Assembly (NCBI GenBank): GCA_030156255.1
Contig: JASGMV010000011.1
Span: 1 to 64,000 of the forward strand
DNA from: Desulfovibrionales bacterium
GTDB taxonomy: Bacteria; Desulfobacterota; Desulfovibrionia; Desulfovibrionales; Desulfovibrionaceae
Direction of reading: 5' to 3'
DNA length: 64,000 nucleotides
The notes beneath the pieces were generated by a model that saw nothing but the letters and a program-made list of their open reading frames with translations, was not told the origin of the DNA and searched no databases. Positions 19,440 to 27,469 of this stretch are shown piece by piece (positions within the stretch are counted from its first letter, which is position 1; each line of letters begins with the position of its first letter). Position numbers and translations under genes: made by a program.

Positions 19440-19832
19440 ATGAGCTTTGATTTCATATCCAAGATCGCAGAAGAAAAGATTCTCGATTCCATGAACCGAG
19501 GCGAATTTCAAAATCTCGAAGGCCAGGGACGCCCGATCGTCTACGAAGACGACTCCATGATCCCCGAAGATTTGCGTATGGCTTATAAAATTCTAAAAAA
19601 TTCAGGCCACACGCCACCCGAAATAGAGCAGGAAAAGGAGATACGCTCCGCTATCGACCTCCTGGAGCACTTTGAAGACGAAAAGGAAAAATATAAACAA
19701 ATCCAAAAGGTTAATTATATGATTACGCAGCTGAATTTAAAGTACAACAGACCGATCCCCTTTGAAAAAGAAGAAGTTTATTATGACAAGTTGGTAGAAA
19801 GGGTGCATGTTCGCTCCTCAGAAAAGAAATGA
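19440..19832 (+). CDS. DUF1992 (DnaJ homologue C28-like) domain protein
   Basis: Protein of 130 residues matching the DUF1992 family: FISKIAEEKILDSMNRGEFQNLEGQGRP carries the core IAExxIxxAxxxGxFxxLxGxGkP pattern, followed by PEDLRMAYKILKNSGHTPPE. It lacks a J domain; function is unknown. GGAG lies upstream of the ATG at 19440. The stop overlaps the next start in ATGA, so the two are translationally coupled. Confidence 0.85.
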   Translation: MSFDFISKIAEEKILDSMNRGEFQNLEGQGRPIVYEDDSMIPEDLRMAYKILKNSGHTPPEIEQEKEIRSAIDLLEHFEDEKEKYKQIQKVNYMITQLNLKYNRPIPFEKEEVYYDKLVERVHVRSSEKK

Positions 19833-21214
19833 GCACGATACGTTGTATGCGCGAGATTTTGCTTTTCGTCATTTTAGCCGTTGTACTCGCTCCCCATTCG
19901 CTTGGCGCGCAGGCCGCGCAAACCGAAAGCCGCCGCCAGGTGGTGGGGGAGAGTTATATCGAGCCGCCGCCGCCATCCGCGCCCGAGCTTGTGTCCAATC
20001 TGAAGGATTATATGGAGCAAAGGCTGCATGCGTATTATCCCTCGGCGCAAGAAATCTATGACTCCGCCTCGACGGGGTTCGGTCCTTTTTCGTATGTTCG
20101 CCTGAAGCCAGTCAAGACAACGCCCATCTTGGCTGGCGACATCGCCGTTTACGGCGGAGGGCTCGAGGCGCTGGCCATCATGAGCAAAGATAGCCGGCTG
20201 CGGGTCTGGGGGAAATACCCTTGCAGTGGGTTGCGGATGGTCAATGGGCCTGCGAAGCTTCTCGAATTGACGCCCAACTCGCCTTGGTTGGCCGCTTTGG
20301 ATAAGGATCGATCCACCATCCGCATGGTCGATTTGAAATCCTGCCGATCCGCCAATGTGTGGCTGCGGGCGAAAAATAAAAAAATCCATGCAATTCAATT
20401 CTCTCGCTTCGGCGATTGGGTCGCCGTCGAGACAGATAATGGAGAGATTTTCGCTGGTCCATCGCTCGGCCCTTTAAAGCCCATCCCGAACCTTGCTGGG
20501 GGGATGCTGGCGTTCGGATTTTCCTCCTACGACGGTGTGCTGATCGCCATGGATTCGGATGGACGGATTGTGTTTTGGGGGATGCGCCCCGGCAAGTTGC
20601 TCGGTGAAATGAATTTGGGAAAAGGATTTAAAACGGCGAGAATCGAAGATGATAATTTAGTATTGGAGCGCAATGACGGGACACAGAAAGTATGGAACGT
20701 CATAACAAGAGCATTTGTTGATGCAAAAATAAAGCCTGGAAAAGAACATGTAAAGCTGAAGTTTAGCAACGGAACGCTATCGCTTGACAATAAAATCACA
20801 AGATGGAAAAAGACCGTGATTATGCGTCATCCATCAGTGATGCTTTATTATTCAAAATCAAAAAACAGCTTGAAGCTCCTGGACATGGATGACTCTACAC
20901 ACTATTACAACGCAACAACCGGCGTTCCCCAGCGTGAAGCGAACGCCAGCGACTGGGTTCTATTGCCCGATAACGACAAGAGTACGTATACGGCGAATGG
21001 GAAAAAATACCGATTGGCCGACCTTGCGTATCAAAAAGGCCACAAGGCGCTTTTTTGTCGATATGTCCCCCGAAGCGGCTTCTTTCTCTGGTGGGTGTCC
21101 GAGCCCGACAGTCGGGATTTTCTCGCTAAAAAAGGAAGTCTACCCAAAAGGACATGCGTGTTGGACGACACCCCGCCGAAGTGGGTGGATTTAACCGCAG
21201 AACCTTTGCCGTAG
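19829..21214 (+). CDS. Secreted WD40-like beta-propeller protein
   Basis: Exported protein of 461 residues. The signal peptide (LLFVILAVVLAPHSLGAQA) is followed by a proline-rich segment and then repeated blade-like units such as LRVWGKYPCSG, IRMVDLKSCRSANVWL and DSDGRIVFWGMRPGK, typical of WD40/YVTN-type propellers. No catalytic motif is visible; a periplasmic scaffold role is likely. An internal ATG at 19847 is an alternative start. Coupled to the DUF1992 gene by a 4-base overlap. Confidence 0.75.
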   Translation: MSTIRCMREILLFVILAVVLAPHSLGAQAAQTESRRQVVGESYIEPPPPSAPELVSNLKDYMEQRLHAYYPSAQEIYDSASTGFGPFSYVRLKPVKTTPILAGDIAVYGGGLEALAIMSKDSRLRVWGKYPCSGLRMVNGPAKLLELTPNSPWLAALDKDRSTIRMVDLKSCRSANVWLRAKNKKIHAIQFSRFGDWVAVETDNGEIFAGPSLGPLKPIPNLAGGMLAFGFSSYDGVLIAMDSDGRIVFWGMRPGKLLGEMNLGKGFKTARIEDDNLVLERNDGTQKVWNVITRAFVDAKIKPGKEHVKLKFSNGTLSLDNKITRWKKTVIMRHPSVMLYYSKSKNSLKLLDMDDSTHYYNATTGVPQREANASDWVLLPDNDKSTYTANGKKYRLADLAYQKGHKALFCRYVPRSGFFLWWVSEPDSRDFLAKKGSLPKRTCVLDDTPPKWVDLTAEPLP

Positions 21215-22739: not shown

Positions 22740-22781
22740 AGGGGCCGCGCAGATTGCACCTGCACGGCCCCTTTTCTTTCG
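22740..22781 (+). terminator. Rho-independent terminator of the phosphofructokinase gene
   Basis: AGGGGCCG (22740-22747) pairs with CGGCCCCT (22765-22772), extended by an inner GCAG/CTGC stem, and is followed by TTTCTTTC. Confidence 0.85.
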
Positions 22782-22936: not shown

Positions 22937-23356
22937 ATGACAGAAGCGCCCCTGCAATTCTTGCGGACTCCCCCCGGAAAGGAGCAAAACCCCGCCCCCG
23001 CCGAGCAGACGGCGGAGACGGGTGGAGGTGGAGGATGGCTTGTGTGCAAGGCCTGCCGTTCTCGCATCACCACGATAGCGCAGCGCACCTCGGTGGCGGG
23101 CCAACACCGGCACGTCTTCTGCAACCCCCACGGCTATGTTTACTCGCTGGGATGTTTTTCCGAGGCCTTCGGGTGCATGGCCTTGGGGCCGCCGTCTCAG
23201 GAATTTTCGTGGTTCGCCGGCTGGGCGTGGCGGATTGCCGTTTGCAAGGGGTGCCGCAACCACTTGGGGTGGGAGTTCGAAAGCACGCAGGATCCTGCTT
23301 GCTTTTGGGGATTGATCCTCGATCAATTGGTGGACGAGCGCGAAGGCAAGATTTAA
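22937..23356 (+). CDS. Cereblon-like CULT-domain protein
   Basis: A single CULT domain of 139 residues, the fold that binds thalidomide in eukaryotic cereblon and also occurs in bacteria. Zinc ligands are Cys37/Cys40 (LVCKAC) and Cys103/Cys106 (VCKGC). The ligand cage of three tryptophans is complete: Trp92, Trp98 and Trp112 in FSWFAGWAW and HLGWEF, with the spacing 6 and 14 seen in cereblon. FCNPHGYVYSLGCF is also typical. No signal peptide; a disordered Pro/Gly N-terminus precedes the domain. The natural bacterial ligand is not known to me. Confidence 0.88.
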   Translation: MTEAPLQFLRTPPGKEQNPAPAEQTAETGGGGGWLVCKACRSRITTIAQRTSVAGQHRHVFCNPHGYVYSLGCFSEAFGCMALGPPSQEFSWFAGWAWRIAVCKGCRNHLGWEFESTQDPACFWGLILDQLVDEREGKI

Positions 23357-26227: not shown

Positions 26228-26302
26228 CGCTGCGAACGCATTGACTTGCCGCCTTCGGATATTAATGTCCTACTAATGAATAAGGAATCCGAGAGGGATG
26301 GC

Positions 26303-27469
26303 ATGGGCAACGTCAAAGAAAAGACTCAACTGGCCGTCACGGCGTGTCTGTTGTTGGCCCTCGCGTTGATCGCGGCGGGGTGCGCTGGGGATGGCGGCGG
26401 GGTCGGGAGCGTACATATGAGCAAAGCCCAAAACGATACGCGCTATGAAAAGGCGGTGTTCGCCGGCGGCTGTTTCTGGTGCCTCGAAGCGGACATGGAG
26501 AAACTGAAAGGCGTGCAGGACGTGGTGTCCGGCTACGCGGGAGGCAAGGCCGCGGAGGCCGCGTACGGGCAGGTCAGCACCGGACGGACCGGGCATTTGG
26601 AGTCTGTTGAGGTTACCTACGACCCGGCTGAAATCGGATACGCCGATCTGGTCCGGTATTTTTTCACCCACGTGGACCCGATGGATGACGGGGGACAGTT
26701 TGTGGATCGCGGTTCGCAGTACCGAACCGCCATCTTTTACGCCGACAGCAAACAGAAGCAGGTCGCCGAGCAGATCAAAGAGCAAATCGAACAATCCGGC
26801 GTGCTGCAGGGCGCCGTTGCAACAATGCTTCTTCCGCTGCAGGGATTTTATCCGGCGGAAGATTACCATCAGGATTACTACAAGGAGAATTCCGTCCGAT
26901 ATCAATGTTACCGGGCCGGATCGGGCCGGGATAAGGTTCTGGGCGAAATTTGGACGCAATCCGCGATGAACAAAAGTTTCCTGGGAGCTGTGGACCAAAA
27001 GGGGCGGGACGAGAAAAAAGACGCCGGGGCAAAGCTTGGCGAAGGTGAACTGAAGACCCGCCTGACGCCTCTGCAATATTCGGTGACGCAGGAGGACGCC
27101 ACGGAGCGCGCTTTTGACAACGAATATTGGGATGAGAAGCGCGAGGGGATCTATGTGGACGTTGTTTCCGGCCAACCGCTTTTCAGCTCCACGGACAAGT
27201 TCGATTCCGGCACAGGCTGGCCCAGCTTCACCAAACCCATCGAACCGGACAGCGTGACGACCCGGGAGGACAAAAGTTTGTCCAGGACCCGGGTCGAGGT
27301 TCGAAGCAGCCAGGCCGACTCGCACCTCGGTCATGTTTTTCAAGACGGCCCTCAGCCGACCGGGGTGCGCTACTGCATGAATTCCGCGGCGTTGCGGTTT
27401 GTTCCTGCGAAAGATCTGGAAAAGGAAGGCCTGGGCCGCTTTCAGGATATCTTCAAGAAAGAGAAGTAG
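26303..27469 (+). CDS. msrAB: Fused peptide-methionine sulfoxide reductase MsrA-MsrB, lipoprotein
   Basis: Periplasmic protein-repair enzyme of 388 residues that reduces both S- and R-methionine sulfoxide. A signal ending in LIAAGC makes it a lipoprotein. MsrA (residues ~45-200) has the catalytic [15 protein letters not shown] and the [12 protein letters not shown] segment. MsrB (~240-380) has [12 protein letters not shown] and the catalytic Cys in RYCMNSAAL. The zinc-binding CxxC pairs of some MsrB proteins are absent. The ATG at 26303 has GAGAGGG upstream; an earlier in-frame ATG at 26276 has no ribosome site. Confidence 0.93.

What the first reader, a model, noticed from the sequence alone, without database searches (positions are those of the whole stretch)
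22937..23356. Bacterial cereblon-like CULT protein with a complete thalidomide-type pocket
Seen: Trp92, Trp98 and Trp112 with spacings 6 and 14, plus Cys37/40 and Cys103/106, reproduce the cereblon CULT pattern in a 139-residue single-domain protein with a disordered N-terminal tail. Known: the CULT family includes eukaryotic cereblon and a few bacterial proteins that bind imides and uracil-like ligands. Inference: a free-standing small-molecule or degron reader whose natural ligand in this bacterium is unknown. The position between pfk and cbiM gives no pathway clue.
Basis: partly seen in the sequence, partly recalled or inferred. Interest (0 to 1): 0.78.

Follow-up and report, generated by a model that had tools for sequence, protein, structure and literature searches.

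The report
Bacterial cereblon-type (CULT) pocket protein
This is a genuine small bacterial relative of cereblon, the human protein that thalidomide binds, with the drug pocket intact; the family has been known since 2014-15 and is common in sulfate reducers, so this is one more member whose job in bacteria is still unknown.

Summary
Window 22937-23356 (+) encodes a 139-aa protein whose residues 31-133 align without gaps to MsCI4, the bacterial cereblon of Magnetospirillum (E 2e-25), and to human cereblon (E ~1e-18). An alignment-based model (pLDDT >90 over the domain) matches MsCI4-thalidomide crystals at 1.4-2 A. The pocket resembles human cereblon more than MsCI4 does at two positions (His65, Phe114).

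It is not new in kind. Lupas et al. 2015 defined the CULT family, including single-domain proteins mainly of delta-proteobacteria. It is not rare either: 33 of 59 relatives carry it and one genome-collection scan gave 295 loci. Neighbours differ between lineages, so context gives no function.

Three additions: the 'disordered' tail carries a conserved hydrophobic-basic motif (here QFLRTPPG) about 30 residues before the first zinc cysteine; obligate pairing with PIMT is unlikely, as this 99%-complete genome has no convincing PIMT; and Solidesulfovibrio-type genomes hold a strongly constrained tandem paralogue that has lost the first cage tryptophan.

Best guess: a cytosolic reader of cyclic-imide or uracil-like groups that folds on ligand. 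Membership is near certain; the mechanism is inferred.

The parts
22937..23356 (+). CULT-domain protein, 139 aa (stop included in coordinates)
   Evidence: ORF; phmmer to MsCI4 2.4e-25 and human cereblon ~1e-18; AlphaFold2 with an alignment of 34 homologues, mean pLDDT 87.8; Foldseek to MsCI4 crystals E 2.6e-12, TM by target 0.90; single copy in the genome
22955..22978 (+). N-terminal tail motif QFLRTPPG (residues 7-14): hydrophobic run + Arg/Lys + Pro, about 30 residues before the first zinc Cys
   Evidence: Motif in 42% of 65 non-redundant homologues against 8% in shuffled tails; PSSM trained on these, tested on 19 held-out Pseudomonadota: score p 0.021, position p 0.003
22979..23029 (+). 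Linker, residues 15-31: acidic in the family, Gly-rich at its end here; predicted disordered
   Evidence: pLDDT about 58-64; acidic fraction mostly 0.2-0.4 per column in the family
23045..23056 (+). CxxC zinc knuckle 1 (Cys37, Cys40)
   Evidence: Invariant in 86/86 homologues
23123..23134 (+). Asn63-Pro64-His65-Gly66 at the inserted beta-hairpin; His65 = human His353, Ala52 in MsCI4
   Evidence: Ungapped alignment, offset 13; residue roles from PMC8900816; N and P 85/86, G 84/86
23201..23230 (+). Pocket loop Glu89-Phe90-Ser91-Trp92 ... Trp98 (MsCI4 Glu76-Phe77-Ser78-Trp79 ... Trp85), with unusual Trp96
23243..23254 (+). CxxC zinc knuckle 2 (Cys103, Cys106)
   Evidence: Invariant in 86/86 homologues
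23267..23278 (+). Gly111-Trp112-Glu113-Phe114: third cage Trp (MsCI4 Trp99) and cage-base Phe (Tyr101 in MsCI4, Phe in human)

Best explanation
The protein is a bona fide single-domain bacterial CULT protein with a cereblon-type pocket. Shown here: CULT sequence and predicted fold, complete zinc site and tri-Trp cage, family-wide conservation of the residues that line the pocket, a gene without a conserved neighbour, and a conserved short N-terminal motif. Inferred: it stays in the cytosol and binds a small planar imide (C-terminal aspartimide or glutarimide on damaged or aged proteins, or free uracil/uridine-like imides) through two backbone hydrogen bonds and the Trp cage. As in MsCI4, ligand binding orders the part of the domain that is floppy when empty, and the N-terminal QFLR-type motif is the output: either a lid that closes on the loaded pocket or a docking peptide for a partner. 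The confidence given is for this mechanism; for family membership it is 0.97.
For: Sequence and fold match to ligand-bound MsCI4 and cereblon. Pocket residues conserved in 86 homologues from several phyla, which argues for one shared ligand class. MsCI4 binds thalidomide and uridine, and about a third of its domain folds only on binding (PMC4449219). In eukaryotes the natural cereblon ligand is the C-terminal cyclic imide, which can form by backbone cleavage at Asn during ageing or stress (PMC11974815); that such damage also arises in bacteria is inference. N-terminal motif conserved and position-constrained, also in held-out Pseudomonadota; in cereblon the N-terminal extension runs alongside the same pocket (PMC4287342).
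Against: No ligand, partner or phenotype in the cell was found for any bacterial CULT protein in the papers searched. Gene neighbours differ in each lineage. PIMT, which makes the cyclic imide in humans, is near-universal in relatives but not convincingly present in this genome, so it is not an obligate partner. Model coordinates could not be read, so neither cage geometry nor tail position was measured. The gene is missing from 21 of 50 good relatives, so the function is dispensable.
Confidence: 0.4

Rival explanations
1. The pocket senses free pyrimidine-type metabolites (uracil, uridine) and the protein is a small metabolite-responsive regulator or buffer.
For: MsCI4 binds uridine in the low-micromolar range and not thymidine or cytidine (PMC4449219); the deoxyuridine complex 4v31 is among the best fold matches.
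Against: No conserved pyrimidine gene beside it. One Desulfobacterales lineage has a cytidylate-kinase-like neighbour, but on the opposite strand and only there. The discoverers could not find a biological context for uridine.
Confidence: 0.25
2. It is a protease adaptor: the pocket holds proteins ending in a cyclic imide and the N-terminal motif docks them on Lon or Clp, a bacterial counterpart of cereblon's ligase role.
For: Cereblon is itself a LON + CULT fusion (PMC4287342); the conserved N-terminal motif plus acidic linker could be a docking peptide; this genome has two full-length Lon proteases.
Against: Two Lons are present in nearly all relatives with or without CULT, so there is no co-occurrence signal. 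No LON-CULT fusion was seen in the bacteria examined and no gene linkage to a protease of that kind.
Confidence: 0.2
3. Ligand binding is secondary and the domain mainly makes protein-protein contacts, like its Yippee/Mis18 cousins.
For: A tandem paralogue in Solidesulfovibrio-type genomes has lost Trp92, Phe93, Asn63 and Pro64 yet is more constrained than the intact copy (dN/dS about 0.05-0.1 against 0.15-0.18). Weak Pfam match to Yippee-Mis18.
Against: In the main copies the cage is nearly invariant across phyla, which is hard to explain without a ligand.
Confidence: 0.15

Closest known systems
MsCI4 (MGR_0879), Magnetospirillum gryphiswaldense cereblon isoform 4 (PDB 4v2y, 5amh, 6r0q and others)
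   Same: Single CULT domain, ungapped alignment over 103 residues, same zinc site and tri-Trp cage (Trp92/98/112 = Trp79/85/99), 40-42% identity
   Different: Phe114 in place of Tyr101 and His65 in place of Ala52, both as in human cereblon; extra Trp96; longer N-terminal tail with a family motif
Human cereblon, thalidomide-binding (CULT) domain
   Same: Fold and pocket; human-like at the His353 and cage-base Phe positions; about 38% identity
   Different: No LON domain and no DDB1-binding region, so no ubiquitin ligase; Phe90 replaces His378
Bacterial CULT group of Lupas et al. 2015, e.g. Desulfonatronospira thiodismutans WP_008870657.1
   Same: Same group: prokaryotic, mainly delta-proteobacterial, CULT domain only
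   Different: Nothing essential; the N-terminal motif is not mentioned in the parts of the paper read here
Yippee / Mis18 (PF03226)
   Same: Beta-tent fold, two CxxC zinc knuckles; weak Pfam match (19.1 bits against cut-off 26.6)
   Different: Below the family cut-off; the tri-Trp cage marks CULT

Membership tests
CULT domain family (bacterial single-domain group) | Significant sequence similarity to known CULT proteins | tested here: met
   MsCI4 E 2.4e-25, human cereblon E ~1e-18 to 1e-16
CULT domain family (bacterial single-domain group) | Two CxxC zinc motifs | tested here: met
   Cys37/40 and Cys103/106, invariant in 86/86 homologues
CULT domain family (bacterial single-domain group) | Three cage tryptophans with conserved spacing | tested here: met
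   Trp92, 98, 112 = MsCI4 Trp79, 85, 99 by ungapped alignment
CULT domain family (bacterial single-domain group) | Beta-tent fold | tested here: met
   AF2 pLDDT >90 over most of the domain; Foldseek E 2.6e-12, rmsd about 1.4-2 A to MsCI4
CULT domain family (bacterial single-domain group) | The three tryptophans form one cage in space | tested here: inconclusive
   Model superposes on MsCI4, but coordinates were not readable, so distances were not measured
CULT domain family (bacterial single-domain group) | Protein consists of the CULT domain alone | tested here: met
   139 aa, residues 31-133 are CULT; the rest is tail
CULT domain family (bacterial single-domain group) | Binds thalidomide or uridine | not testable with these tools
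   Needs purified protein
Cereblon proper (CRL4 substrate receptor) | LON domain and DDB1-binding region fused to CULT | tested here: not met
   139-aa ORF with CULT only
Yippee-Mis18 (PF03226) | Pfam gathering score | tested here: not met
   19.1 bits against 26.6

The most novel reading that the evidence does not exclude
Bacterial CULT proteins are a widespread ubiquitin-free quality-control system: the pocket reads C-terminal cyclic imides on damaged proteins and the conserved N-terminal hydrophobic-basic motif hands them to a protease, which would make cereblon's degron reading older than its ubiquitin ligase.
Probability: 0.12. Interest if true: 0.85.

Novelty: new member of a known kind. 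Interest (0 to 1): 0.3.

Why it matters
The protein itself is ordinary for its group. The open question it belongs to is worthwhile: what a thalidomide pocket does in a cell without ubiquitin. The survey gives that question some handles: a conserved N-terminal motif to mutate, a natural cage-less paralogue as a built-in control, and a human-like pocket (His65, Phe114) that might serve as a crystallography surrogate without engineering.

Tried and rejected
Single-sequence structure prediction failed (pLDDT 37.8) and was replaced by the alignment-based model. A genome scan with the single protein found nothing; the alignment found 295 loci. Viral, phage and plasmid searches found no CULT, so a mobile-element role is not supported. 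Operon hypothesis: no shared neighbour; among near conserved neighbours, 45 of 75 upstream and 40 of 80 downstream lie on the opposite strand, so neither an operon nor a fixed pair. Long ORFs (323-324 aa) in L039 and L044 looked like N-terminal fusions, but the extra part looks like read-through of upstream DNA in an open frame (judged by eye); not claimed. PIMT: rejected as an obligate partner. Lon co-occurrence: uninformative. No Rfam family in the window. The first held-out PSSM test lost minus-strand loci (12 of 19 kept) and was redone. The motif regex was chosen after looking at the training sequences, hence the held-out test; there the plain regex gave p 0.028 only.

Full report
Observation. 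The ORF at 22937-23356 (+) is real and reads as described: 139 aa, Cys37/40, Cys103/106, Trp92, Trp98, Trp112. It is the only copy in a 3.84-Mb, 99%-complete genome. Upstream lies a phosphofructokinase (PF00365) and downstream cbiM (PF01891), both on the same strand, with 227 and 95 bases between. The stretch after pfk holds a GC-rich hairpin-like sequence followed by T residues near 22740-22780 (seen by eye), but the terminator scan did not list it, so I do not claim an independent transcript.

Identity. phmmer against all PDB sequences gives MsCI4 of Magnetospirillum gryphiswaldense at E 2.4e-25, then human and mouse cereblon at E 1e-18 to 1e-16, and nothing else of weight. Pfam shows only Yippee-Mis18, below its cut-off, the known cousin family. 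NCBIfam has no match. A structure predicted from 34 homologues has mean pLDDT 87.8, above 90 for most of the domain, and the best Foldseek hits are MsCI4 complexes with thalidomide, deoxyuridine and glutarimides (TM by target about 0.9, rmsd about 1.4-2.1 A).

Pocket. The alignment to MsCI4 is ungapped with an offset of 13, so Trp92/98/112 equal Trp79/85/99, Phe90 equals Phe77 and Phe114 equals Tyr101. According to PMC8900816 glutarimide binds through the backbone of Phe77 and Trp79 and the tri-Trp cage, Tyr101 adds a bond that human cereblon lacks, and human His353 is Ala52 in MsCI4. The window protein has Phe114 and His65 at those two places, so its pocket is closer to the human one there; Phe90 against human His378 is a remaining difference. 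Trp96, next to the cage, is unique among 86 homologues.

Distribution. 33 of 59 relatives carry the gene (29 of 50 good genomes). The order is taken to be Desulfovibrionales because contigs of the relatives match named Desulfovibrio and Desulfonatronospira records of the same length. A scan with the alignment found 295 loci, of which the best 80 were kept: mainly Desulfobacterota, also Gammaproteobacteria, Magnetococcales, a Polyangia and a Spirochaetes bin. 39 of 395 genomes of the phylum and 21 of 399 Pseudomonadota, seeds included, have it. A tree of 84 sequences groups partly by phylum but is poorly resolved (102 columns). No phage, virus or plasmid copy was found. Lupas et al. 2015 (PMC4287342) already named this group, mainly from delta-proteobacteria and consisting entirely of the CULT domain, with a Desulfonatronospira example. 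This is therefore a new member of a known kind.

Neighbourhood. Clustering the neighbours in 113 loci showed no gene family that accompanies CULT across lineages. What is shared is lineage synteny, for example an M23 peptidase in Desulfonatronospira, a cytidylate-kinase-like gene in one Desulfobacterales group, LigT in Desulfonatronum.

The tail. Lupas et al. describe the bacterial proteins as the CULT domain alone. In the sequences here a short motif, two or three large hydrophobics, then Arg/Lys, and often a Pro (QFLRTPPG in the window; LLLKEEPG, YLFRVPPE, LLLREKPG elsewhere), sits about 30 residues before the first zinc Cys, followed by an acidic linker. A regex finds it in 42% of 65 non-redundant tails against 8% in shuffles. 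A PSSM trained on those and applied to 19 held-out Pseudomonadota gives score p 0.021 and position p 0.003. The effect outside Desulfobacterota is modest. In cereblon the N-terminal extension packs along the same pocket, so a lid is one reading and a docking peptide another; neither is shown.

Mechanism tests. If cyclic imides made by PIMT were the ligand, CULT might track PIMT. PIMT is near-universal in relatives, but this genome and G052 (99% complete, also CULT-bearing) show only weak partial PF01135 matches (E 5e-8 and 6e-11, against 1e-55 or better in most others). Spontaneous imide formation remains possible. Two full-length Lons occur in almost every relative irrespective of CULT, so that test is silent.

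A diverged paralogue. In G024 and in Solidesulfovibrio magneticus and Desulfovibrio sp. DV (L037, L070, L091, L082) a second CULT gene follows the first on the same strand. It keeps all four zinc Cys, Trp98 and Trp112 but lacks Trp92, Phe93, Asn63 and Pro64. Among L070, L091 and L037 its dN is 0.009 at dS 0.08-0.2, tighter than for the intact copy (dN 0.05-0.08 at dS 0.3-0.5), so it does not look like a decaying pseudogene. It suggests that a cage-less CULT fold can be kept by selection.

Verdict. CULT membership is near certain and the pocket is complete; the function in bacteria is unknown in the literature searched. Best mechanism: ligand-dependent reader of cyclic-imide or uracil-like groups, confidence 0.4. 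Interest 0.3.

Noticed in passing
L037:9440-9862 (-), L070:8678-8977, L091:8678-8977, L082:8610-8900: Tandem second CULT gene in Solidesulfovibrio-type genomes that has lost the first cage Trp and the NP motif but keeps the zinc Cys, Trp98 and Trp112, and is under stronger purifying selection than the intact copy.
   Followed up: partly
G000 (own genome), G052: No convincing protein-isoaspartate methyltransferase (only weak partial PF01135 matches) in two near-complete genomes of a group where it is otherwise near-universal.
   Followed up: partly
L130, L131, L070/L091, and MsCI4: Several CULT carriers have magnetotactic names or relatives (Desulfamplus magnetovallimortis, Magnetococcales, Solidesulfovibrio magneticus, Magnetospirillum); may only reflect shared habitat.
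   Followed up: no
window 26246-27469 (+): MsrA-MsrB fusion (PF01625 + PF01641) about 3 kb downstream; MsrB shares the beta-tent fold with CULT, probably coincidence.
   Followed up: no
window 19829-21214 (+): 461-aa ORF with no Pfam match and what looks by eye like a signal sequence.
   Followed up: no
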